From an uncultured Clostridia bacterium (GTDB lineage Bacteria > Bacillota_A > Clostridia > Oscillospirales > Oscillospiraceae): DNA of 28,409 nucleotides. Below, piece after piece: positions 803 to 28,076 of the stretch; position 1 is the stretch's first letter; the number at the start of each line of letters is the position of its first letter. The stretch is taken from positions 1 through 28,409 of the forward strand of contig CASEPH010000084.1 of the NCBI GenBank assembly GCA_949289625.1, in the 5' to 3' direction. The translations under genes and the position numbers were made by a program. Under the pieces are notes generated by a model. The model ran no database searches and had not been told where the DNA came from. It was given only the letters and a program-made list of their open reading frames with translations.

Positions 803-1261
803 ATGATGGAAAAAGCGATTTCCGGTACTTACTTTATCAAAATGCGTCTGCCGGATCCCAAACTGGTCCACGGCCCTGATTTTCAGGCCGGACCACCGGC
901 AGGTGGTCCTCCTCCGGAGGGCGGCCCGGAAGGGATGCCTGCAGGGGGACCGCCTCCTGCACCCCCCGCGCCCGAGGGCCTGAAAGACTACGGCGAGCCT
1001 GGGTGGGGATCCTTCGAGGGAGAGATGACCTTTCATTTCACCCCTAACCCTGACGGCACGCTGTCCGGGGATGCCAACGGCAGCCCCATCAACTTCGGCT
1101 TCTACACTGGAGACGAGTTCTTCAAGGTGGATTTCCCTGCCGGTCCCGGCCGTTGGGAGGTATGGGCGAGAGTTGATAAGGAAGGCTACATCGAAGGGAT
1201 GATCTCCGTAGGTGGAAACAAAGGCTTCCCCAACTTTGTCTATGGGAAAAAGCTGGATTGA
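803..1261 (+). CDS. Small beta-rich protein of unknown function with a Gly/Pro-rich linker
   Basis: I do not recognise this 152-residue protein with certainty. It has no signal peptide or membrane segment, so it is likely cytoplasmic. A short N-terminal strand (ISGTYFIKMRLPD) is followed by a Gly/Pro-rich stretch, about residues 32-56, made of GGPPP-type repeats. The second half alternates strands and Gly turns (FTPNPDGTLSGD, INFGFYTGDEFFKVDF, GYIEGMISVGG), which suggests a small beta barrel reminiscent of lipocalin-like domains. It sits 11 bases after the MaoC-like gene, with AAGGAGGG at 790-797 overlapping that gene's stop. ATG 803 and ATG 806 are both possible starts. The position suggests it works with the MaoC-like protein, perhaps in substrate or product binding; that is inference. 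A strong terminator follows. Confidence 0.6.
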   Translation: MMEKAISGTYFIKMRLPDPKLVHGPDFQAGPPAGGPPPEGGPEGMPAGGPPPAPPAPEGLKDYGEPGWGSFEGEMTFHFTPNPDGTLSGDANGSPINFGFYTGDEFFKVDFPAGPGRWEVWARVDKEGYIEGMISVGGNKGFPNFVYGKKLD

Positions 1262-1286
1262 TTCTATCAGCCCATATCGGAATACA

Positions 1287-1340
1287 GGCCATGGCTGTAC
1301 TGGCAAACAATATTGCCGGTCAGCCGTGGCCGCTTTTTTT
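1287..1340 (+). terminator. Rho-independent terminator after the MaoC-like pair
   Basis: GGCCATGGCTG (1287-1297) pairs with CAGCCGTGGCC (1321-1331), with a smaller GGCAA/TTGCC hairpin inside the loop. Seven Ts follow at 1334-1340. This ends the first transcription unit and separates it from the flippase operon. Confidence 0.85.
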
Positions 1341-1399
1341 CAAAAAAGGAAAAAACATATCAAAACTTCACAAAAACTACACAAAATGCACAACGAAGC

Positions 1400-1428
1400 T
1401 TGAAGCCTATGGGATCATGTGCTATAGT
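1400..1428 (+). promoter_or_regulatory. Sigma-A-type promoter of the flippase/murT/gatD-like operon
   Basis: TTGAAG (1400-1405) and TATAGT (1423-1428) are separated by 17 bases. The predicted start of transcription is near 1435, about 65 bases before the GTG start of the flippase gene. Confidence 0.65.
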
Positions 1429-1499
1429 ATGCCATAGAAATTTTCCCATGTAATGCTTATCCATGGCATCGAGAGAGAAACCGGGGGAAGGGGGATCCT

Positions 1500-3143
1500 G
1501 TGAGCAGAGGTATGCGAAAAAACAGCTTTGCAGAGGGAACCTTTGTGGCTTATGCGGCCATTGTGATCTCAAAGCTGATGGGCGCGTTGTACAGCATCCC
1601 CTTCTATCACCTCATCGGAGACCAAGGCGGCGTAATCTATTCCTGTGCCTATAACATCTACGCATTGTTCTTGGACATCTCCACTGCTGGAATTCCCATA
1701 GCGGTGAGTATTGTGATCAGCGAGTACAATGCCAGGGGAATGTATCGTTCCAAGGAACGGACCTATCGTGTGGCGCTGCGGGCTGTATTGGGACTATCTG
1801 TTGTATCCTTCCTAGTGCTTGAAGTGTTTGCCAAACAGATCGGGCTTTATTTTCTGGAGGATATGACAGAAGGCGTCAGACCGGAGGATATTGCCGCAGG
1901 GGTCAGAGCGGTGGCGCTGTGCCTGCTGGTGGCGCCCTTTCTCAGCGTGAAGCGAGGGTATCTCCAGGGCCATAAGTTCCTCGCTGCTCCCTCCCAAAGC
2001 CAGATCATTGAACAGCTGGTGCGGATCGCAGTGGTGCTAGCGGGCACCTATTGTACGGTGGTTTTGATGCAGCTGAGCGCCACCGTGGGCGTCTGCGTAG
2101 CGTTGACTGGCGCTGCCATCGGTGCGTTGGCAGCACTGCTGTATTTGCAACACAAATGCCGCGGCAGCCGGGATGCGTTCCAAACGGTAGGAAACCAGGG
2201 GGAACCGGTGGCCTCCACAGGGCAGATCCTGAAAAAGGTCCTGTCCTACTGTACCACCATCGTGATCATGTCCGTCTCCATCAGCATCTACAGCTTGGTG
2301 GATATGAAAATGCTGCTGGTGGGACTTCACAATCTGGGTTTCCCGGACCAGGATACCCAGGTGATTGCCAGCATCTCCTCCACCTGGATCCCCAAGATCT
2401 GCATGATCATTACGGCCTTGTCCATGGGCCTGGTCAGCAGTTTGGCCCCCCATATGGCTGAGAGCAATACCCTGGGAGAGCAGCGGCAGATCAATGCCAA
2501 GCTGAATCAGGCGCTGGGCACGCTGGTGCTCATTGCGGTGCCGATGGGACTGGGAATGATCCTGCTGTCGGAACCGGTGTTCCGGCTGTTTTATGGAGAA
2601 AGCGCCTACGGCTCTGGGATTTTACAGCTGGCGGTGGTGGTGAACGTGGTGGGCAGCATGGCCACGGTGACCAGCATGTCCATGCAGAGCATTGGCCGGG
2701 GAAAGACCGTTTGCGTTGTGACGCTGATCGGGATTGTGGTGAATGCGGCCCTGGATCTGCCTCTGATCTATCTGTTTCATGGGCTGGGCATCCCGGCCTA
2801 TCTGGGAGCAACAGCTGCCAGTGTGGTCGGGCAGGGCCTGACGGTGCTGATGCTGTTGGGGGCGCTGAAGCGGACCTATCGATTTCGATATTTTCCGGTG
2901 CTCCGGACCTTTCTGCGAGAGCTGCTTCCCCTGGCCGCTATGACGGCTGTGGTACTCTGCTTGAAGCTTCTTTGGCCTGTGACCGAGGCCAGAGGCATAT
3001 TCCTGGTGGTGCAGCTCTTTGCCTATGCCATTGTGGGTGGCGGCGTATATCTGGGCCTGGCCTACCGGATGGGGGCTGTGGCGGAGGTTGCAGGGACCCG
3101 GTTCTTGCAAAATGTTTTTCAGAGACTGAGATTTGGAAGGTAA
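1500..3143 (+). CDS. MurJ-like lipid flippase (MOP superfamily, YtgP/SpoVB type)
   Basis: This 547-residue integral membrane protein has the MOP-superfamily pattern of about 14 hydrophobic helices and the opening typical of Clostridia MurJ/YtgP-like flippases (EGTFVAYAAIVISKLMGALYSIPFYHLIG). Its length matches B. subtilis YtgP. Members move lipid-linked precursors, such as lipid II or wall-polymer intermediates, across the cytoplasmic membrane. GTG at 1500 is preferred because the purine-rich AAGGGGGAT lies about six bases upstream; the in-frame ATG at 1512 has a ribosome-like sequence directly against it. The MurT-like gene begins four bases after the stop, and its ribosome site lies inside the last codons here. 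This supports coupled translation and a lipid II role. A second MOP-family gene lies at 20378-21922, so this copy may be the MurJ-type one; substrate is inferred from context. Confidence 0.8.
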   Translation: MSRGMRKNSFAEGTFVAYAAIVISKLMGALYSIPFYHLIGDQGGVIYSCAYNIYALFLDISTAGIPIAVSIVISEYNARGMYRSKERTYRVALRAVLGLSVVSFLVLEVFAKQIGLYFLEDMTEGVRPEDIAAGVRAVALCLLVAPFLSVKRGYLQGHKFLAAPSQSQIIEQLVRIAVVLAGTYCTVVLMQLSATVGVCVALTGAAIGALAALLYLQHKCRGSRDAFQTVGNQGEPVASTGQILKKVLSYCTTIVIMSVSISIYSLVDMKMLLVGLHNLGFPDQDTQVIASISSTWIPKICMIITALSMGLVSSLAPHMAESNTLGEQRQINAKLNQALGTLVLIAVPMGLGMILLSEPVFRLFYGESAYGSGILQLAVVVNVVGSMATVTSMSMQSIGRGKTVCVVTLIGIVVNAALDLPLIYLFHGLGIPAYLGATAASVVGQGLTVLMLLGALKRTYRFRYFPVLRTFLRELLPLAAMTAVVLCLKLLWPVTEARGIFLVVQLFAYAIVGGGVYLGLAYRMGAVAEVAGTRFLQNVFQRLRFGR

Positions 3144-3147
3144 AACA

Positions 3148-4581
3148 ATGAGGAAGTTGCAGTTTTTTGTGGCGCTGTGGGCAGGGAAACTATTCCTTTG
3201 GTGGTACCTGCGCAGAGGAAAACGACAAAATGACCGCCCAGGCATGGTATCCATGCGGCTGTGCGGAGATTTTTTAAAGTATGTGGCAAAGCCCCAGCTG
3301 ACCATTGCCGTGACCGGCACCAACGGAAAGACCACGGTTTCCAGCATGGTTGCATCTATTCTGGAGGCCCAGGGGAAAAGCGTATCCTATAACGATTGGG
3401 GCGCCAACCATCACGCCGGACATGCCCGGTGCTTGCTGGATGCGGTGAGCATTTTCAATAAGCCCACCAAGGATGCCGTGGTCATTGAGATGGACGAGTT
3501 GATTTCTCCCATCAATGTGCCGAAGTTGAAGCCGGATTATCTCATCATCAATAATTTGGCGCGGGACTCCATGCTGCGCAATGCCCATCCCGGCTATATC
3601 CAGGATCATCTGCGACAGGCGGTGGAGGCGGCCCAGGATACGGTGGTGATCGTCAACGCAGACGATCCCTGCTGCTGTTTTCTGGGGGAGCACAATCGCC
3701 GGGTCTATTTTGGCATGACCGATACCAGAACCAATCCCATGCCCACCCGGGTGGACGATTTTTCCGTATGCCCCAAGTGTGGGGCAAAGCCGGTATACAA
3801 GTATCGGCAGTATCGTCATGTGGGAGAGTTCTACTGCCCCAGATGCGGACTGAAAACCCCGGAACGGGATTACTTTATCCAGCAGGTGGACTATGACGGC
3901 ATGACCATGCAGGTGCGGGAACCGGATGGTATCCATGGCTATCCCTTGGTGTCCAAGGCCATCTATAATATCTATGACGTGGCGGCAGTGATTGCCCTGT
4001 TTCGGGATATGGGAATGCCGGCGGAAGTGTTGGCCCAGGCGCTGGGGCATGTGAAGGTACCGGCGTCCCGGGAGACCCGTCAGACCGTAGAGGGCATTGA
4101 GCTCATCACCCAGCTGGCCAAGGGGCAAAATCCCACTGCCACCTCTACGGTGTTTGAGAATGTTTATCGGGACCCTCGTACCAAAGAAATTGTGCTGCTG
4201 CTGGATGAGGTGTTTGACGATCCCCACAAGTCGGAGACCATTGCCTGGATCTATGACAGCGACTATGAGTTTCTCGGGGGCGATACGGTCAAGAAAATCA
4301 TTGTGGGAGGAGAACGATATCTGGATCATCGGGTCCGGCTGCTGCTGGCAGGGATTCCGGCGGAACGGATCGTCTGTGTGCGGGATCCCTTTGACACGCC
4401 CCAATATGTGGATACAGAGGGTGTGGAACATATCTATGTGCTTCACGATGTGAATTTCATCAGCCGGGGCCACAGGATCCGGGATGAAATCGCCGCTGGG
4501 ATTCGGGAAAGTGCAGCCCACAAAAAAGAGCAGCACCAGCCCCTGACAAAGCCTGCCCAGGAAACGAGGTGCTGCGTATGA
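3148..4581 (+). CDS. murT: MurT-like Mur ligase (lipid II isoglutaminyl synthase, ligase subunit), divergent
   Basis: In the known family MurT amidates the alpha-carboxyl of D-Glu in lipid II using ATP and ammonia supplied by GatD. This 477-residue protein has an N-terminal hydrophobic helix (about residues 5-20), the Mur-ligase P-loop GTNGKTT (57-63), and the MurT-specific zinc ribbon with Cys 208, 211, 230 and 233. The C-terminal domain carries the segment TIAWIYDSDYEFL, where MurT proteins usually read close to D-x-SWLWDxDFE. The family's RDQLDRYGE-like segment appears here as RDSMLRNAHP, so the ligase core is divergent. ATG 3148 is chosen over an upstream TTG because GGAAGG at 3135-3140 is seven bases before it. 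The gene overlaps the GatD-like gene by ATGA. Ligase family is clear; the exact substrate is less so because its partner looks catalytically dead. Confidence 0.8.
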   Translation: MRKLQFFVALWAGKLFLWWYLRRGKRQNDRPGMVSMRLCGDFLKYVAKPQLTIAVTGTNGKTTVSSMVASILEAQGKSVSYNDWGANHHAGHARCLLDAVSIFNKPTKDAVVIEMDELISPINVPKLKPDYLIINNLARDSMLRNAHPGYIQDHLRQAVEAAQDTVVIVNADDPCCCFLGEHNRRVYFGMTDTRTNPMPTRVDDFSVCPKCGAKPVYKYRQYRHVGEFYCPRCGLKTPERDYFIQQVDYDGMTMQVREPDGIHGYPLVSKAIYNIYDVAAVIALFRDMGMPAEVLAQALGHVKVPASRETRQTVEGIELITQLAKGQNPTATSTVFENVYRDPRTKEIVLLLDEVFDDPHKSETIAWIYDSDYEFLGGDTVKKIIVGGERYLDHRVRLLLAGIPAERIVCVRDPFDTPQYVDTEGVEHIYVLHDVNFISRGHRIRDEIAAGIRESAAHKKEQHQPLTKPAQETRCCV

Positions 4582-5294
4582 CCATAGAAGTGCTCTTTCC
4601 AGAACTCAGTAATCTCTATGGAGACATGGCGAATATCAGGTATCTCCAGGCGTGCATGCCGGAGGCGGAGGTGCTCCAGACTAACAACTGCCAGGAACCC
4701 CGGTTTGTGACCCAATGGGTGGATATGCTCTATTTGGGATCCATGCCGGAGCAGGCGCAGAAGCTGGCGGTTCGGCGGCTTTTGCCCTATCGGGAACGGC
4801 TGAAAGAGATGATCCGTGACGGTGTGGTTGTGCTGGTTACCGGAAATGCCGTGGAGCTGTTTGGTCAGTATATTACAGAACAAGCTGGGAAAACAGAAAT
4901 GCTGGGCATGTTCCCCTATTATTCCAAACGGGATATGGAAAATCGCCACAATTCCATGTTTTTGGGGCGGTTCGAGGATATCCCAATTGTGGGATACAAG
5001 TCCCAGTTTTCCTTCTGCTATGGACATTTCCCGGGGAAGTTCATTGACGTTACCGGAGGCTTTGGCAACAATCCCGAGGACTGCAGTGAAGGATTCCACT
5101 ACCGGAACTTCTTTGCCACCTATCTGTTGGGCCCCTTTTTGGTGCTCAATCCCTTGTTTACTAAGTATCTGCTGCGGCTGCTGGGCCATGATGACCACTT
5201 GGCCTTTGAATCGGAGACCATGGAAGCCTTCCGCTTTCGGAAGGAAAACCTGGAAAAGCCGGGAGTCAACTTTCTGATGGGGGAAAATGGCTGA
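4578..5294 (+). CDS. GatD-like class I glutamine amidotransferase domain lacking catalytic Cys and His (pseudoenzyme)
   Basis: GatD normally hydrolyses glutamine and passes ammonia to MurT. This 238-residue protein keeps the GatD layout: an N-terminal PELSNLYGD motif (family: LYPDLLNLYGD), GFGNNPEDCSEG at 161-172 (family: GYGNNGEDGxEG), and TYLLGPFLVLNP at 181-192 (family: TYLHGPLLPKNP). The active site is gone. The nucleophile elbow, normally ICGGYQLLG, reads TGNAVELFG (88-96), placing Gly89 at the Cys position, and the catalytic His becomes Leu184. The ENHGGRT-type segment is also replaced (YKSQFSF). The frame is intact throughout, so this is not a frameshift artefact. The ATG overlaps the murT-like stop (ATGA), and GAGGTG at 4565-4570 serves as ribosome site, so the proteins are probably made in equal amounts. 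It is likely a structural or regulatory partner of the MurT-like ligase. Confidence 0.75.
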   Translation: MTIEVLFPELSNLYGDMANIRYLQACMPEAEVLQTNNCQEPRFVTQWVDMLYLGSMPEQAQKLAVRRLLPYRERLKEMIRDGVVVLVTGNAVELFGQYITEQAGKTEMLGMFPYYSKRDMENRHNSMFLGRFEDIPIVGYKSQFSFCYGHFPGKFIDVTGGFGNNPEDCSEGFHYRNFFATYLLGPFLVLNPLFTKYLLRLLGHDDHLAFESETMEAFRFRKENLEKPGVNFLMGENG

Positions 5295-5301
5295 CGTCCC
5301 G

Positions 5302-6129
5302 TTATGGGAGGCGAAGCTGCCAGAAGGCCACTGCACTGGCGGCGGCTACATTTAGAGAATCCACACCCCTGAACATGGGAATGCATATTGTATCATCACA
5401 ACTGGCTATGGTTTTGGAGGAGAGGCCGTCTCCCTCGGTGCCCAAAACGATGGCCAGTTGCTTTTTTTGCGTTAGCTGGGGGGAGGTTATGTCAACTGAA
5501 TTGTCGCTGAGGGCCATGGCTGCCGTATGAAATCCCAGAGAACGAAGCCGAGCAAGGCCAGCCTCTGGCCAATCCTCCGGTTTTTGACCGATCCGGGTCC
5601 AGGGAATTTGAAAAACGGTGCCCATGCTGACCCGCAGCGCGCGCCGGTGCAGGGGATCGCAGCAGGAGGGGGTGACCAAAACGGCGTCCATTCCCAGGGC
5701 TGCTGCACAGCGGAAGATGGCCCCCACATTGGTGGGGTCCACAATATTCTCCAGCACGGCGATCCGCCGGACGCCGGTGCAGATCTCCTCAACGGAAGGC
5801 AGGGGACGGCGTCGCATGGCGCACAGAATCCCCCGGGTCAAAGCATACCCGGTGAGCTGGGATAAAAGGTCACGGTCTGCAGTGAAAACCGGGATGTCAC
5901 CGCAGCGAGCAATCAGTTCCCGGGCCTGGCCGGCGATGTGCTTGCGCTCCATCAACAGAGACAGAGGCGTATAGCCTGCGTCCAGTCCATGGGAAATCAC
6001 CTTGATGCTTTCCGCGATAAAGATTCCCTTCTCCGGTTCTCGGCGGGACCGAAGCTGTGCTTCGGTCAGACGACAGTATATGTCCAGCTCCGGTGCTGTC
6101 AGATCTGTGATTTCCACGATGTTTGCCAT
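5302..6129 (-). CDS. SpoU/TrmH-family RNA 2'-O-ribose methyltransferase
   Basis: A cytoplasmic 275-residue SPOUT methyltransferase that transfers a methyl group from S-adenosylmethionine to a ribose 2'-OH in rRNA or tRNA. All three SpoU motifs are present: ENIVDPTNVGAIFRCA (127-142) with the invariant Asn and Arg, IVLGTEGDGLS (227-237), and IPMFRGVDSLNVAAASAV (250-267), which forms the knotted cofactor site. The N-terminal half (about 1-105) fits the L30e-like RNA substrate-binding domain of the RlmB/TsnR group. ATG 6129 is preferred to the upstream TTG at 6144, because the protein then begins MANIVEITDL and the ribosome-like GGGG lies upstream. The gene converges on the GatD-like gene with only seven bases between the stops. 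The precise RNA target cannot be told from sequence alone. Confidence 0.85.
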   Translation of the reverse strand: MANIVEITDLTAPELDIYCRLTEAQLRSRREPEKGIFIAESIKVISHGLDAGYTPLSLLMERKHIAGQARELIARCGDIPVFTADRDLLSQLTGYALTRGILCAMRRRPLPSVEEICTGVRRIAVLENIVDPTNVGAIFRCAAALGMDAVLVTPSCCDPLHRRALRVSMGTVFQIPWTRIGQKPEDWPEAGLARLRSLGFHTAAMALSDNSVDITSPQLTQKKQLAIVLGTEGDGLSSKTIASCDDTICIPMFRGVDSLNVAAASAVAFWQLRLP

Positions 6130-21922: not shown

Positions 21923-22229
21923 GGAAACACCTCCCGTCTAAATTATTCGTCGTAGAAAGAAAATATGCTGAAGACAAGTTGAAGGTAAAGTGATAATTCT
22001 GTGATGAAATATTGTACTAAAGCACTAAAAAAAGGAAGGGAAAAAGACGAGAGTAAATGGAATTGTATGGTTTGACAAAAGTGGGTAAAAAAACAGAGGA
22101 TTTCTTGTCAAGTTCTTCATTGACGATTGGGATGGAAAAGTTTATAATTAGGACATCAAATGTCCATGCTGGGGAATATTGTGTTCGCGTATCGGAGACA
22201 ACCTGGCTAGATTAAAGGAGAGATTTTGC
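21923..22229. other. Intergenic region with the opp promoter and leader
   Basis: This 307-base A/T-rich stretch separates the flippase and oppA genes. It holds the opp promoter: TTGACG (22120-22125) and TATAAT (22143-22148), 17 bases apart. Three bases after the -10 box an inverted repeat, GGACAT-CAA-ATGTCC (22151-22165), covers the expected transcription start. It could be an operator or a stabilising 5' hairpin. A second TTGACA (22073-22078) has no matching -10. The oppA ribosome site AAAGGAG is at 22214-22220. I saw no gene here and no confident promoter for the minus-strand flippase. Confidence 0.6.
22120..22148 (+). promoter_or_regulatory. Sigma-A promoter of the opp operon
   Basis: TTGACG and a perfect TATAAT at a 17-base spacing, the strongest promoter match in the window. 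Confidence 0.8.
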
Positions 22230-23933
22230 ATGAAAAAGAGAGTGCTTGCACTGCTTTTGGCCGCGCTGATGGTCATGAGCTGCACAGCCTGCGGCGAATC
22301 CGCTGCCTCCACTGCCGAGACTTCCGCTCAGTCGGCTGCCTCCAGTGCTGAGGGCAGTACCGCCGAAACCACTACCGCCTCCGGCGGATACCTCAATGTC
22401 ATGACTGAGGTGGAGGTTGCTTCGCTGGATCCTCAGCAGGCCACCGACGGTACTTCCTTTGAAGTCATTGCCGACTATACCGACGGTCTGATGCAGATGG
22501 ATGCGGAGGGCTCTGCTGTTCCCGCAATTGCAGAGAGCTATGAGGTCTCTGAAGACGGCACCACCTACACCTTCAAGCTCCGTGAGGATGCCAAGTGGTC
22601 CAACGGGGATCCCGTTACTGCCGATGACTTCGTTTTTGGCTGGCAGCGTGCTGTGGATCCCAATGTTGCCTCTGAGTATTCCTATATGCTCAGCGACATC
22701 GGCCAGGTTGTGAATGCTGCCGAGATCATCGCCGGAGAGAAGCCTCTGGAGGAGTTGGGCGTCAAGGCTGTGGATGAAAAGACCCTGGAGGTTCAGCTGA
22801 ACGTCCCCGTGTCCTACTTCCTGTCTCTGATGTACTTCCCCACCTTCTATCCCGTGAACCGTGCGTTCTATGAGTCTCTGGAAGAGGGCACCTTCGGCAC
22901 CAGCCCCGAGACTGTGCTTTCCAACGGCGCCTTCATCCTCGAGTCCTATGAGCCTGCCGCTCTGAACTTCACCCTGAAGAAGAACCCTGACTACTATGAC
23001 GCTGATAAGGTTCAGCTGGAAGGCTTGAACTATCAGGTCATCAAGGATCCTCAGCAGGCTCTGATGAGCTATCAGGCTGGCGACCTGGATGTTATGAAGC
23101 TTTCTGGCGACCAGGTAGACCAGGTTAAGGATGATCCTTGCTTCACTGTCCACGGTGCTGGCTATCTGTGGTATCTGACCATGAACGGCAACGATGTGGA
23201 AGCCCTGAGCAATGTCAATATGCGTATGGCCATCTCCAATGCGCTCAACCGTGAGGCCATTGTCAACGACGTGGTGAAGGACGGCTCCGTGGCTACATAC
23301 ACCGCTGTTCCGCCTCAGTTTGCCACCGGCCCCGACGGCTCCGACTTCTCTGCCGATCAGACCAAGTTCCAGGAGTACTGCGCAGATGACGCCGAAAAGG
23401 CCAAGGAATACTACGACAAGGCTTGCGAGGAGCTGGGCCAGACGGAGTTCACCTTTGAACTGCTGGTAGAAGACCAGACCGAGACCCAGAACGTGGGCGC
23501 TGTTATCAAAGAGCAGATCGAGAGCGCGCTGCCTGGCGTGACCCTGAACCTGAAGGTAGAGCCTAAGAAGCAGCGTGTAGAGGACATTCAGAACGGCAAC
23601 TATGAGGTCTGCCTGACCCGCTGGGGTCCCGACTACGCCGATCCTATGACCTACCTGAACATGTGGGTTACCGATTGCTCCAACAACTACGGTCTGTGGA
23701 GCAACGCTGAATACGATGCCATTATCGAGAACTGCACCACCGGCGAGCTGTGCACCGATCCTGAGGGCCGCTGGGAGGCCATGTACGAGGCAGAGCAGAT
23801 CGTGATGGAAGAGGCCGTGATCGCGCCTGTTTATACCAAGGCTGACGCGTGCATGATCAGCAGCAACGTCTCCGGTATCGAATTCCATCCTGTTGCTTTG
23901 AATCGCGTATATAAAAACGCCACGAAGGGTTAA
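22230..23933 (+). CDS. oppA: Oligopeptide ABC transporter substrate-binding lipoprotein
   Basis: Binds peptides outside the membrane and delivers them to OppBC. The 567-residue protein has a signal peptide (MKKRVLALLLAALMVMS) ending at a lipobox; Cys21 in SCTACG is the likely lipidated residue, with Cys18 possible. A Ser/Thr/Ala-rich linker (about 22-51) precedes the family 5 solute-binding fold, with the hallmark VASLDPQQATDGTSFEVIADYTDGLMQ and later the domain II segment LTRWGPDYADPMTYLNMW typical of OppA. ATG 22230 follows AAAGGAG by nine bases; the longer reading frame from 22179 would place non-signal residues ahead. Codons are more T- and C-ended and even than in neighbours, consistent with high expression. 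A hairpin separates it from oppB. Specificity (oligo- versus dipeptide) is not certain. Confidence 0.9.
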   Translation: MKKRVLALLLAALMVMSCTACGESAASTAETSAQSAASSAEGSTAETTTASGGYLNVMTEVEVASLDPQQATDGTSFEVIADYTDGLMQMDAEGSAVPAIAESYEVSEDGTTYTFKLREDAKWSNGDPVTADDFVFGWQRAVDPNVASEYSYMLSDIGQVVNAAEIIAGEKPLEELGVKAVDEKTLEVQLNVPVSYFLSLMYFPTFYPVNRAFYESLEEGTFGTSPETVLSNGAFILESYEPAALNFTLKKNPDYYDADKVQLEGLNYQVIKDPQQALMSYQAGDLDVMKLSGDQVDQVKDDPCFTVHGAGYLWYLTMNGNDVEALSNVNMRMAISNALNREAIVNDVVKDGSVATYTAVPPQFATGPDGSDFSADQTKFQEYCADDAEKAKEYYDKACEELGQTEFTFELLVEDQTETQNVGAVIKEQIESALPGVTLNLKVEPKKQRVEDIQNGNYEVCLTRWGPDYADPMTYLNMWVTDCSNNYGLWSNAEYDAIIENCTTGELCTDPEGRWEAMYEAEQIVMEEAVIAPVYTKADACMISSNVSGIEFHPVALNRVYKNATKG

Positions 23934-23948
23934 TCGCAGGACGAGATA

Positions 23949-24006
23949 ATACTGGAAACAGGACCGCACAGTGGTTACAACATTCCGCTGTGCGGCCTTT
24001 CAGTAT
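23949..24006 (+). terminator. Intercistronic hairpin between oppA and oppB
   Basis: CCGCACAG (23964-23971) pairs with CTGTGCGG (23988-23995), inside a wider ATACTG/CAGTAT stem (23949-23954 with 24001-24006). Only a short T stretch is present, so it probably stops part of transcription or protects the oppA message, leaving more binding protein than permease. Confidence 0.5.
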
Positions 24007-24049
24007 GGAAGGCAATCATTAACCCAAATGTGGAAAGGATGGCAAAAGC

Positions 24050-24985
24050 GTGTTAAAGTATATTCTCAAGCGAGTGGCGATGTCCGTTTGCACCTTGCTT
24101 GTTATTCTTCTGGTGCTGTTTACCCTGCTCCAGCTCATGCCGGGCTCTCCCTTCAACGACGAAAAGCTTACGGACGAGCAGCGAGCGGCGTTGGACGCCA
24201 AATACGGCCTAGATCAGCCTCTGGTGGTCCAATTCGGCCGGTATGTGGTGAACATGATGCAGGGCGATCTGGGCGTCAGCTACAATATCAGTAAAAATAC
24301 ACCCATTAGTCAGCTGATCGAAGCCCGGCTGCCGGTGTCCATTCGTGTGGGCGGACAGGCGGTGTTCCTGGGGGCTGTGGTAGGTTTGCTGCTGGGAATT
24401 ATCTCCGCACTGATGCGGGGAACCATTGTGGACTCGCTCTGTACGCTGATTTCTGTCATCGGCATTGCGGTCCCCTCCTATGTGTTCGCCTTAGCCCTGA
24501 GCTACTCCATGGGATTCAAGGCAGGATGGTTCCCCATGCTCTATGACAGCACCGAGGCATTTCGGTCCTCCGTGCTTCCTTCCATCTCTCTGAGTATGTT
24601 TACCATGGCATCTATTGCCCGGTTTACTCGCAGTGAGATGCTGGAGGTGCTGGACAGCGATTATATGCTTCTGGCAGAGAGTAAGGGCATCAGCGGGGCA
24701 TCCCTGATTTTCAAACATGCGCTGCGGAACGCCCTGATTCCCATTGTAACGGTTCTGGCACCGCTGATCGTGGACCTGATGACCGGTTCTTTGGTGGTGG
24801 AGAAAATCTTCTCCATTCCCGGCGTGGGCAGCTTGCTGGTTACTGCGATCCAGTCCAACGACTATAATGTGGTTATCTCTCTGAGCTTTATTTATTCTCT
24901 GATGTATATTGTGATTATGCTGGTGGTGGATGTGCTCTACGGCATCATTGATCCCAGAATTCGCTTGGCAAAGGACGGTGATTGA
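24050..24985 (+). CDS. oppB: Oligopeptide ABC transporter permease OppB
   Basis: A 311-residue membrane permease with six helices. It has the OppB start (LKYILKRVAMSVCTLLVILLVLFTLLQLMPGSPF) and the external loop after helix 1 with KYGLDQPLVVQFGRYVVNMMQGDLG. The cytoplasmic EAA loop near residue 205 (YMLLAESKGISGASLIFKHALRNALIP) is where the ATPases dock. GTG 24050 is the start, with AAAGGAT about nine bases upstream, and puts the first helix directly after MLKYILKR. The gene follows the oppA hairpin and overlaps none of its neighbours; oppC starts two bases after its stop. Confidence 0.92.
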   Translation: MLKYILKRVAMSVCTLLVILLVLFTLLQLMPGSPFNDEKLTDEQRAALDAKYGLDQPLVVQFGRYVVNMMQGDLGVSYNISKNTPISQLIEARLPVSIRVGGQAVFLGAVVGLLLGIISALMRGTIVDSLCTLISVIGIAVPSYVFALALSYSMGFKAGWFPMLYDSTEAFRSSVLPSISLSMFTMASIARFTRSEMLEVLDSDYMLLAESKGISGASLIFKHALRNALIPIVTVLAPLIVDLMTGSLVVEKIFSIPGVGSLLVTAIQSNDYNVVISLSFIYSLMYIVIMLVVDVLYGIIDPRIRLAKDGD

Positions 24986-24987
24986 CT

Positions 24988-26067
24988 ATGGCGAGACAGA
25001 AAGCGAAACCCATTGTGGCCTCGGGGCCTGTGGACTTGGATTCCATTGAATTCCTGCCCAATGATTTTGAACGGAAGCAAGTCGGAGATGAGATCCATAC
25101 CGATTCCAGCTTTACTTCTCAAAACTATTGGAAGGATGTTCGGAAACGCTTTTTCTCAAAGAAAAGCGCTGTAGTCGGTCTGGTGCTCATTTTGCTGATT
25201 GCTGTGATGGCCATTGTGGGCCCGGGGATGAATGATTACACCTATTCCGGCCAGACCTTGGCGGAAAAGAATTTGGCACCCAGAATCCCTGGAATCGAAG
25301 AGCTGGGGATTTTCGACGGTGATGAGAAAATGTCCACTACCACCGGCACCAAAATTGTCAACTACTACGAGGAAAAGGGACTGGATGACACCTACTACTG
25401 GTTCGGTTCCGATACCCTGGGCCGGGACATTTGGACCCGCGTCTGGTCCGGCGCCCGTGTTTCCCTGATTATTGCCGTGGTGGCCACCGTAATTGATATG
25501 ATTATCGGCATGAGCTACGGCCTGATTTCCGGCTATTTTGGCGGCATGGTGGACAACGTGATGCAGCGTATCGCGGAAATTGCCAACAGTATCCCACGAC
25601 TGGTCATTGTAACTCTGCTGCTTCTGGTGCTCAAGCCCGGCCTTTGGACCATCATCTTTGCGCTGATGCTGACAGAATGGATCGGTATGAGCCGTATTGC
25701 CCGAGCGGAAATGCTCAAGCTCAAGGAGCAGGAGTTTGTCCTGGCCTCCAGAACCCTGGGTGCAGGCAGCTTCTTTATCATTTTCAAGGAAGTTCTGCCC
25801 AACATCATTGGGCCCATCATCACCCAGTGCATGTTGTCCATCCCCACCGCCATCTTTACCGAGGCGTTCCTGAGCTTTGTGGGTCTGGGCATTCCGGTGC
25901 CTGAGTGTTCCCTTGGTTCCCTCATCAACGATGCGTTCAACAGCTTTACCACCCATCCCTATCAGATCATTCCGCCCATTGTGGTGATGGCGCTGTTGAT
26001 GCTGAGCTTCAATATCGTGGCCGACGGACTCCGCGAGGCGTTGGACCCGAAGATGAAGGAAGCGTAA
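24988..26067 (+). CDS. oppC: Oligopeptide ABC transporter permease OppC
   Basis: A 359-residue permease that pairs with OppB. A cytoplasmic head (about 1-58) precedes helix 1 (KKSAVVGLVLILLIAVMAIVGP). An external loop longer than usual, about 70 residues, then follows, ending in the OppC motif YWFGSDTLGRDIWTRVWSGARVSL. The EAA loop (EQEFVLASRTLGAGSFFIIFKEVLPN) and the conserved FLSFVGLGIPVPECSLGSLIN are near the end. ATG 24988 is preferred to a TTG six bases earlier because it gives a start next to AAGGACGG. The loop expansion may be a docking site for OppA, but that is inference. Confidence 0.92.
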   Translation: MARQKAKPIVASGPVDLDSIEFLPNDFERKQVGDEIHTDSSFTSQNYWKDVRKRFFSKKSAVVGLVLILLIAVMAIVGPGMNDYTYSGQTLAEKNLAPRIPGIEELGIFDGDEKMSTTTGTKIVNYYEEKGLDDTYYWFGSDTLGRDIWTRVWSGARVSLIIAVVATVIDMIIGMSYGLISGYFGGMVDNVMQRIAEIANSIPRLVIVTLLLLVLKPGLWTIIFALMLTEWIGMSRIARAEMLKLKEQEFVLASRTLGAGSFFIIFKEVLPNIIGPIITQCMLSIPTAIFTEAFLSFVGLGIPVPECSLGSLINDAFNSFTTHPYQIIPPIVVMALLMLSFNIVADGLREALDPKMKEA

Positions 26068-26080
26068 GGAGGTGGCGGAT

Positions 26081-27154
26081 ATGGCAGATAAAGAACAGAT
26101 TTTGAAAATCCGCGACCTGGATATCAGCTTTAAGACTTCCTCGGGCTATGTCCATGCCATTCGTGGCGTGAATATTGACCTGATGAAGGGAGAGACTGTG
26201 GCCGTGGTGGGTGAGTCCGGCTCCGGTAAATCCGTGACCATGAAGGCGGCCATGGGTATCTTGGCCAAAAACGCCACCGTGGGCAGCGGAACCATTGAGT
26301 TTTCCTATCACCATGATGACGGCACCCCGGAGACTGTGGACATCCTCAAAAAGGATAAGAAATGGATTCGTCGGCATATCAACGGCAAACGGATCGCCAT
26401 GGTGTTCCAGGATCCCATGACCTCTCTGGATCCCACCATGACGGTGGGCAAGCAGATCATGGAAGGCATGATCTGGCACTACAAAACCCCCAAGGCGGAG
26501 GCCTACCAAAAGGCGTTGAAACTTCTGGAACTGGTGGGCATCACGGACGCGGAGAAGCGGATGAAGAACTATCCCCATCAGCTCTCCGGCGGTATGCGGC
26601 AGCGTGTGGTCATTGCCATTGCCCTGGCCTGTGACCCGGATCTGCTGATCTGCGATGAGCCCACCACAGCCTTGGACGTCACCATCCAGGCCAAGATTCT
26701 GGAGCTCATCAAAGACATCCAGGCCAAGACCGGTATCTCCGTCATTTATATTACCCACGACCTGGGCGTGGTGGCCAAGGTGGCGGACTTTGTCAACGTG
26801 ATGTACGCCGGTAAAATCGTGGAGCGGGGTACCATCGATGAAATTTTCTATGATCCGCGGCATCCCTATACCTGGGGCTTGCTGTCGGCTATGCCGGATC
26901 TGGATACCACAGACGACAGACTCTATACCATTCCCGGCAGCCCACCCAACCTGCTCCACGAGCCCAAGGGTGACGCCTTTGTGGATCGCAACGAGTTTGC
27001 CCTGAACATTGACGACCGTTTGGATCCGCCCATGTTTAAGATTACGGATACCCACTATGCGGCCACATGGCTGCTGGATCCCAGAGCACCCAAGGTGGAT
27101 ATGCCGCCGGAGCTCCGGGCCAGAATCGACCGGATGAAGAAGGAGGGGAACTAA
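26081..27154 (+). CDS. oppD: Oligopeptide ABC transporter ATPase OppD
   Basis: A 357-residue ATPase that drives uptake with OppF. Walker A is GESGSGKS (44-51), the signature LSGGMRQR (168-175), and Walker B ends in LLICDEP (Asp192, Glu193). The C-terminal OppD extension has the family-typical [29 protein letters not shown] segment, followed by a [17 protein letters not shown] tail without the four-cysteine Fe-S site seen in some homologs. ATG 26081 has GGAGGTGG as ribosome site, and an earlier GTG is ignored. It is the fourth gene of the operon. Confidence 0.93.
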
Positions 27155-27155
27155 T

Positions 27156-28076
27156 ATGGCAGAGCCTGTTTTGAAGGTAGAAGGGCTCAAGCAGTACTTC
27201 CCCATCAGCCGGAAGTTCACCGTCAAGGCGGTGGACGGCGTTAATTTTGAAATCTATCCGGGGGAAACCTACGGCCTGGTGGGCGAGTCTGGTTCCGGAA
27301 AATCCACCATTGGTCGGAGCGTCATTCGGCTCTACAATCCCACGGATGGCACCATTATTTTTGACGGAGAGGACATCTCCGGAAAGCTGACCAAGGAAAA
27401 GCAGACCAAACTCCGCACCCAGATGCAGATGATATTCCAGGATCCCATGGCCTGTCTCAACCCCCGGAAAAAAGTGGTGGACATTATCGCCGAGGGCCTG
27501 GACATCCACCATCTGTGTAAGAGCAAGGCGGACCGGGAGGAGCAGGTGGCTAGGATCCTCCAGAAGGTGGGACTGGCACCGGAGCATGCGGAACGGTATC
27601 CCCATCAGTTCTCCGGCGGACAACGGCAGCGTGTGGGCATTGCCCGGGCACTGATTATGAATCCCAAGCTGATCATTGCCGACGAATGCATTTCCGCTCT
27701 GGACGTGTCCATTCAGGCTCAGGTGGTGAACCTGATGAAGGACCTCCAGAAGGAGACAGGAACGGCCTATATGTTTATTGCCCATGATCTGTCCATGGTC
27801 AAATATATTTCGGATCGCATTGGCGTATTACATCTGGGGCATCTGGTGGAGAGTGGAACAAAGGACGAAATTTTCTCCAATCCCATTCATCCCTACACCA
27901 AGAGCCTTTTAAGCGCGATTCCCCATCCCAATCCCAGAGCGGAGAAGAATCGGGTGGCCCTCAGCTATGACTATGCCACCTCTGGAATCGACTACACCTT
28001 GGGACAGCAGCATCTGATCGATGGCAGCCATTATGTGCTGGGAACTGACGAGGAGATCGCCAGCTGGACAAAGTAA
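27156..28076 (+). CDS. oppF: Oligopeptide ABC transporter ATPase OppF
   Basis: A 306-residue ATPase that partners OppD. It has Walker A GESGSGKS (43-50), the signature FSGGQRQR (152-159) and Walker B ending IIADE (Asp176, Glu177). Cys178 replaces the more common Pro after the Glu. The C-terminus carries HPYTKSLLSAIPHPNPRAEK. Start ATG 27156 lies one base after the oppD stop, with AAGGAGG upstream. A hairpin follows and closes the operon. Confidence 0.92.
   Translation: MAEPVLKVEGLKQYFPISRKFTVKAVDGVNFEIYPGETYGLVGESGSGKSTIGRSVIRLYNPTDGTIIFDGEDISGKLTKEKQTKLRTQMQMIFQDPMACLNPRKKVVDIIAEGLDIHHLCKSKADREEQVARILQKVGLAPEHAERYPHQFSGGQRQRVGIARALIMNPKLIIADECISALDVSIQAQVVNLMKDLQKETGTAYMFIAHDLSMVKYISDRIGVLHLGHLVESGTKDEIFSNPIHPYTKSLLSAIPHPNPRAEKNRVALSYDYATSGIDYTLGQQHLIDGSHYVLGTDEEIASWTK

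What the first reader, a model, noticed from the sequence alone, without database searches (positions are those of the whole stretch)
4578..5294. GatD-like protein that has lost its glutaminase active site but is still co-translated with MurT
The GatD fold motifs (LYGD, GNNPED, TYL-GP-NP) are intact, yet the nucleophile elbow reads TGNAVE instead of CGGYQ-type sequence (Gly89 at the Cys position), and the catalytic His is Leu184. The ENHGGRT-like segment is also replaced. The reading frame is clean, the ribosome site is good and the gene overlaps the MurT-like gene by ATGA, so this looks like a maintained pseudoenzyme rather than a decaying gene. It could stabilise the ligase, channel free ammonia, or mark a change of amine donor. 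Loss of glutaminase residues is seen directly; function is inference.
Basis: partly seen in the sequence, partly recalled or inferred. Interest (0 to 1): 0.8.

Follow-up and report, generated by a model that had tools for sequence, protein, structure and literature searches.

The report
Cell-wall amidase partner without glutaminase site
Many clostridial bacteria make a peptidoglycan-amidating enzyme pair whose glutamine-splitting half has lost its catalytic residues yet is conserved, and in some the other half is fused to a flippase-like protein, which suggests that they amidate cell-wall precursors with free ammonia.

The parts
1400..1428 (+). promoter-like site (TTGAAG-17-TATAGT, TG before second hexamer) upstream of the operon
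   Evidence: consensus scan only, (6 found in 1200-5500, 3.4 expected)
1500..3143 (+). MOP-superfamily flippase, SpoVB/MurJ type, first gene of the operon; relatives of it are fused to MurT
   Evidence: Pfam Polysacc_synt 67.8, MatE 43.8, MurJ 39.9 bits, all over cut-off; NCBIfam SpoVB 99.5 and MurJ 37.9, both under cut-off; stop ends 4 nt before the MurT start
3148..4581 (+). MurT-type Mur ligase, 477 aa, partner subunit
3562..3591 (+). MurT gate loop facing GatD: RDSMLRNAHP instead of RDQLDRYGE-type
   Evidence: DNA read
4120..4131 (+). MurT K-G-Q-N loop with a two-residue insertion against canonical K-N-P
   Evidence: insertion in 73 of the 76 main-clade rows with a readable GatD (gap in the other 3), absent in 89 of 89 Cys/His rows
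4566..4569 (+). GAGG, likely ribosome-binding site, 8 nt before the GatD start
   Evidence: sequence
4578..4581 (+). ATGA overlap of MurT stop and GatD start
   Evidence: sequence
4578..5294 (+). pseudo-GatD, 238 aa, class I glutaminase fold without catalytic Cys and His
4842..4844 (+). codon of Gly89 at the nucleophile position (S. aureus Cys94)
4998..5009 (+). KSQF segment replacing the ENHGG-type segment
5127..5129 (+). codon of Leu184 at the catalytic His position (S. aureus His189)

Best explanation
The protein is a conserved pseudo-glutaminase. It no longer hydrolyses glutamine (inferred from the missing Cys, His and oxyanion glycines) but still docks on MurT, is needed to hold the ligase in its active form, and leaves open or shapes the path by which free ammonia/ammonium reaches the MurT site. 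MurT activates the alpha-carboxyl of D-Glu in a lipid-linked peptidoglycan precursor with ATP, and ammonia attacks to give D-isoglutamine. The rebuilt MurT gate loop (new Asn, usually a new His) would help the pair use ammonium at cytoplasmic pH. In the window's lineage the pair is made in one operon with, or fused to, a flippase of lipid II type, so that the precursor is modified where it is flipped. Shown: loss of the site, conservation, selection, retained MurT core residues, co-varying gate, operon and fusion. Inferred: docking, ammonia as donor, D-isoglutamine as product, the role of the new His, and that the flippase moves lipid II.
For: Fold and pairing. Clade: 76 of 76 readable without Cys, 74 of 74 without His. 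Selection. MurT core in the 78-row clade: P-loop Lys 78/78, E114 78, D116 78, E117 75, N87 75, zinc Cys 78/78. Gate co-variation: Asp139 (S. pneumoniae numbering) absent in 78/78 and present in 89/89 Cys/His rows; Phe/Tyr141 is Asn in 72/78; Glu143 is His in 68/78. Direct precedent: S. aureus MurT/GatD C94G, the same Cys-to-Gly change, loses glutamine- but keeps NH3-dependent amidation at pH 8.5, and MurT alone is inactive (PMC3266927 section 22). A separate loss with an unchanged MurT gate (L138, L139, L140, L143, L144) shows that the glutaminase can be lost while the pair is kept. Flippase-MurT fusion: L095 and 12 protein clusters; the operon again in L165. Genomes G001 and G002 also hold a CarA paralogue with Cys to Gly, which looks like a second ammonia-fed enzyme.
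Against: No biochemistry or muropeptide data. The S. aureus C94G pair, like the wild type, did not use ammonia at pH 7.5. The gate and pocket changes (E58 67/76, N90 65/76, E93 63/76) exceed what loss of hydrolysis needs, which may mean a different donor or ligand. The new gate His is not universal: all 12 fusions have Thr there. 28 of 30 class I amidotransferase loci read in seven such genomes keep their Cys elbow, so there is no general switch to ammonia. MurT Asp349, needed in S. aureus, is mostly replaced (Asp in 18 of 78; an acid there or one residue earlier in 76 of 78).
Confidence: 0.5

Rival explanations
1. The pair uses another amine donor (an amino acid, diamine or similar), bound by the remodelled pseudo-GatD pocket and MurT gate, and makes a substituted D-Glu rather than D-isoglutamine.
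For: New conserved pocket-side residues (E58, G89, N90, E93 invariant in a set of 19; 67, 75, 65 and 63 of 76 in the wider clade) and a new Asn/His gate loop look like a new binding site. Substituted D-Glu alpha-carboxyls are known in other bacteria (recalled, no call).
Against: The MurT core is unchanged; the C94G precedent shows that ammonia suffices; the separate loss in L138-L144 keeps the old gate, so loss alone does not need a new donor.
Confidence: 0.2
2. Ammonia is supplied by a separate glutaminase acting in trans, so the chemistry still starts from glutamine although GatD is inert.
For: Other class I amidotransferases of such genomes keep the Cys elbow (28 of 30 loci). A GlmS-like gene lies near the pair in L064 (by eye).
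Against: Reading by eye the starts of the frames in 14 main-clade neighbourhoods and 11 more I noticed no recurring glutaminase gene besides that one GlmS; no family search of the neighbours was run, so this is weak.
Confidence: 0.12
3. Pseudo-GatD is purely regulatory or structural: a sensor or scaffold linking MurT to the flippase, with amidation lost or minor.
For: Fusion and operon with a flippase; remodelled interface loop.
Against: The MurT core, hinge and zinc residues tabulated are each kept in at least 72 of 78 rows, which relaxed catalysis would not predict.
Confidence: 0.13
4. Decay, sequencing error or chance.
For: Single odd GatDs elsewhere (e.g. L012, L142, L171) could be such cases.
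Against: Clade-wide replacement motif, purifying selection, confident fold.
Confidence: 0.02

Closest known systems
MurT/GatD lipid II isoglutaminyl synthase (S. aureus, S. pneumoniae, S. pyogenes structures)
   Same: Gene pair, folds of both subunits, MurT ATP/acceptor/zinc residues, LYGD motif, TYL-GP-NP region
   Different: No Cys94/His189 equivalents, no oxyanion GGG, changed ENH segment; MurT Asp349 mostly replaced, often by a Glu one residue earlier; gate loop and K-xx-N insertion; NCBIfam scores far under the equivalog cut-offs
S. aureus GatD C94G laboratory mutant (PMC3266927, section 22)
   Same: Cys to Gly at the nucleophile; behaves as the proposed natural state (ammonia only, at pH 8.5)
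   Different: The natural clade has also lost His, oxyanion and ENH residues and has a rebuilt MurT gate
Vertebrate carbamoyl phosphate synthetase I
   Same: Inactive glutaminase domain kept as part of an ammonia-using synthetase (PMC4655335, PMC7657897, passages)
   Different: Unrelated synthetase; only the principle is shared
SpoVB/MurJ-type MOP flippases
   Same: Window 1500-3143 and the N-terminal half of the fusions match these families
   Different: Fused to MurT in relatives; scores under the NCBIfam equivalog cut-offs, so lipid II as cargo is inferred

Membership tests
GatD, class I glutaminase subunit of lipid II isoglutaminyl synthase | GatD fold | tested here: met
GatD, class I glutaminase subunit of lipid II isoglutaminyl synthase | nucleophile Cys in the elbow | tested here: not met
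   Gly89
GatD, class I glutaminase subunit of lipid II isoglutaminyl synthase | catalytic His | tested here: not met
   Leu184
GatD, class I glutaminase subunit of lipid II isoglutaminyl synthase | oxyanion GGG | tested here: not met
   GSMPE in place of GGG(S/Q)D
GatD, class I glutaminase subunit of lipid II isoglutaminyl synthase | Arg128 for glutamine capture | tested here: inconclusive
   an Arg is near (R123), but the alignment is shifted by two residues between subclades
GatD, class I glutaminase subunit of lipid II isoglutaminyl synthase | curated NCBIfam cut-off | tested here: not met
   82.2 of 450 and 58.1 of 400 bits
GatD, class I glutaminase subunit of lipid II isoglutaminyl synthase | glutamine hydrolysis | not testable with these tools
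   needs assay
MurT | P-loop, GAN Asn, Glu/Asp-Glu set, zinc ribbon | tested here: met
   invariant together with canonical MurT in a 47-row alignment
MurT | Asp349 (S. aureus) third catalytic residue | tested here: not met
   window has Thr at W-3 and Glu at W-4; Asp at W-3 in 88 of 88 canonical rows, 18 of 78 in the clade; an acid at W-3 or W-4 in 76 of 78
MurT | curated NCBIfam cut-off | tested here: not met
   137.7 of 800 and 129.1 of 800 bits
MurT | lipid II amidation | not testable with these tools
   needs assay
Lipid II flippase MurJ | Pfam PF03023 over cut-off | tested here: met
   39.9 against 27.4 bits, but Polysacc_synt scores higher (67.8)
Lipid II flippase MurJ | NCBIfam murJ_mviN equivalog cut-off | tested here: not met
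   37.9 of 235.55 bits; spore_V_B 99.5 of 372.3
Ammonia-dependent pseudo-glutaminase complexes (CPS I type) | glutaminase domain without its site plus synthetase with its core residues | tested here: met
   by sequence only
Ammonia-dependent pseudo-glutaminase complexes (CPS I type) | ammonia-dependent activity | not testable with these tools
   needs assay

The most novel reading that the evidence does not exclude
A clade-wide, glutaminase-free MurT/pseudo-GatD complex, in some lineages built onto the flippase itself, modifies a lipid-linked peptidoglycan precursor with free ammonium (or another amine) as it is flipped: a natural ammonium-fed, flippase-coupled version of lipid II amidation in Clostridia.
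Probability: 0.35. Interest if true: 0.85.

Novelty: new variant of a known kind. Interest (0 to 1): 0.72.

Why it matters
MurT/GatD is described as a glutamine-dependent enzyme and a drug target, with the Cys-His site as its hallmark. Here the majority type in one clostridial order (47 of 66 MurT-bearing genomes of the sample) has no such site. If the ammonia reading is right, peptidoglycan amidation in these bacteria depends on ambient ammonia, glutaminase-directed inhibitors would miss them, and the amidation of their wall, which in mycobacteria masks a NOD-1 ligand (PMC11132681, abstract in the listing), could follow ammonia supply. The flippase-MurT fusion gives physical evidence for where in the pathway the modification happens.

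Tried and rejected
Chance or decay: rejected for the main clade. Alternative Cys/His pair: none conserved clade-wide; Cys144 of the NKCS-type subclade is present in 24% of the 76 rows. Flippase adjacency as a general rule: rejected; in the loci fetched by then, hits only at L023/L106, L030/L095, L165 and (opposite strand, weak) L142; canonical loci mostly have short flanks, so no rate is claimed. MurT Asp349: I first read it as the Asp of WIYD; counting residues showed it is three before the Trp, and the statement was corrected. The genome of the window is not held, so I could not ask whether it has a second pair or which order it belongs to; the order survey is that of G001, the genome of the one named relative. 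The single genome-contig scan gave one relative. Proportions from the class and phylum surveys are not given because mainly low-scoring and top-scoring hits were fetched there; the relatives and order surveys were read completely. Six short MurT rows were dropped from the tree (L001, L018, L151, L177, L217, L220) and 21 duplicate loci were removed by hand. The tree is a quick search with SH-aLRT support only. The fusion search scored only the 7994 candidates sharing most words. Absence from print rests on these listings in open PubMed Central only: searches (no paper; one paper, PMC3266927; 40 of 78 listed; 15 of 16 listed), judged by titles and abstract starts.

Full report

Not one odd gene. 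A first protein search gave 425 relatives, 120 of them listed. Aligned with the window, none of the 121 has a Cys at the nucleophile position (116 Gly, 3 Ser, 2 Asn) and none of the 120 readable has the His; the elbow reads TGN(A/S)xE or a near variant. The one relative with a named record, from the single genome-contig scan, is a buffalo-rumen Oscillospiraceae MAG (L001). Its genome, G001, holds two MurT/GatD-like pairs, and both GatDs lack the site. The first two surveys were read completely. In the order survey 47 of 66 genomes carry the main-clade type without Cys and His, 16 carry Cys and His, and 3 were not readable. In the relatives survey 15 of 27 are of the main-clade type, 9 have Cys and His, 2 have no GatD in the stretch and 1 has His but no Cys. 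No genome of the tree set has a main-clade and a canonical row together.

Tree and co-variation. A MurT tree of 194 rows (six short rows dropped; quick IQ-TREE, LG+C20, SH-aLRT support) has a branch with support 99 that cuts off 78 rows including the window: 76 with readable GatD, one partial, one without GatD. Of the 76, the nucleophile is Gly in 75 and Ser in 1, and the His position, readable in 74, is never His. Across the tree at least 10 changes between 'Cys and His' and 'lost' are needed. So there were other losses: a clade of five (L138, L139, L140, L143, L144) that keeps the canonical MurT gate, a group L209-L213 of which four keep the His, and scattered single cases that may be errors (L012, L129, L142, L167, L170, L171, L216, L218). 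All 89 Cys/His rows have the canonical gate Asp and lack the two-residue insertion, which is present in 73 of the 76 main-clade rows (gap in 3). In the 78-row clade the gate Asp is absent in 78, Phe/Tyr141 is Asn in 72 and Glu143 is His in 68, while P-loop Lys, Glu114, Asp116 and all four zinc Cys are kept in 78 of 78, and Glu117 and the acceptor Asn in 75. MurT Asp349 is Asp in 88 of 88 canonical rows and in 18 of 78 here, but an acid lies at that place or one residue before it in 76 of 78. The ligase core has been kept; what changed is the side that faces the glutaminase.

Selection. Pairwise dN/dS of main-clade GatD is 0.04-0.41 in 15 measurable pairs of 16, against 0.04-0.12 in seven canonical pairs (some dS values are saturated). 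The gene is constrained, somewhat less than canonical GatD.

The fusion. In genome G002 the flippase and MurT are one frame of 1004 codons (L095), followed by pseudo-GatD (L030). A search that could only return long proteins (0.55-1.75 times this length) gave 20 hits, of which 12 are such fusions of 1003-1050 aa; all 12 have the pseudo-type gate (RDSMLRNATP in 11, RDSMLRNATV in 1). Twelve clusters down to 57% identity make an assembly fault unlikely. Five more hits (P0188-P0192) are MurT-GatD fusions with Cys elbows, and P0194 is a MurT-pseudo-GatD fusion. A flippase frame also stands before MurT and pseudo-GatD in L165, a distant subclade, and after them on the same strand in L106. This links the pair to a lipid-linked precursor.

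Mechanism. Published work on S. aureus shows that C94G, the same change as here, abolishes glutamine-dependent but not ammonia-dependent amidation at pH 8.5, that neither wild type nor mutant uses ammonia at pH 7.5, and that MurT alone is inactive (PMC3266927, section 22). In S. pneumoniae the loop 135-143 lies at the GatD interface, may form the ammonia channel, and lacks the His that other Mur ligases have in this loop (PMC6085368, sections 11 and 13). The clade here has lost the glutaminase, kept the subunit, and rebuilt this loop, usually with a new His (whether at the place of the other Mur ligases' His I did not test). I therefore think pseudo-GatD is an obligate non-hydrolytic subunit and ammonium is the donor, the new loop helping to take up ammonium at neutral pH. 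That last step is inference. Carbamoyl phosphate synthetase I is a known case of the same principle (PMC4655335 and PMC7657897, passages). As a control, of 37 class I amidotransferase (PF00117) places in seven pseudo-GatD genomes 30 loci were read: 28 keep the Cys elbow; the two others are CarA paralogues of the sister genomes G001 and G002 with Gly at the Cys. So the loss is largely specific to GatD, with a second ammonia-type enzyme in those two genomes.

What is not shown. Donor, product, docking and cargo are inferred. A different amine donor would also explain the remodelled pocket. The structural work used single chains, without coordinates.

Literature. I saw passages of PMC6113224, PMC5871853, PMC11915815, PMC7657897 and PMC4655335; passages and sections 5 (part 1 of 4), 11, 12 and 13 of PMC6085368; passages and section 22 of PMC3266927. 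The searches showed, among the papers listed, none on a glutaminase-free GatD clade or a MurJ-MurT fusion.

Noticed in passing
L241 967-2070 and onward (G002); L244 (G001): A CarA paralogue with Gly at the catalytic Cys (LAVGLGHQ) and, in L241, FDPV for HPE, followed with overlap by CarB: looks like an ammonia-dependent carbamoyl phosphate synthetase; the same genomes have a CarA with the usual site (L223, L224)..
   Followed up: partly
L209-L213: Another MurT/GatD-like lineage in which MurT itself has lost the GAN Asn and the Asp-Glu pair; GatD lost Cys, and four of five keep His. Genome G838 carries it (L213) beside a canonical pair (L186)..
   Followed up: partly
L138, L139, L140, L143, L144: Separate loss of GatD Cys and His with an unchanged MurT gate loop.
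   Followed up: partly
L016/L176, L157, L173, L207, L215: MurT-like genes with no GatD found in the fetched stretch.
   Followed up: no
P0194 (761 aa), L208, L255, L258: Divergent MurT with gate of xDQVxRNGxP type and a pseudo-GatD with a GTS or GTA elbow, in P0194 fused into one chain.
   Followed up: partly
G001 (L001 and L002), G002 (L030 and L018): Two different MurT/pseudo-GatD pairs in one genome.
   Followed up: partly
window 22179-28076: Looks like an oligopeptide ABC transporter operon (binding protein, two permeases, two ATPases), by eye from the ORF list.
   Followed up: no
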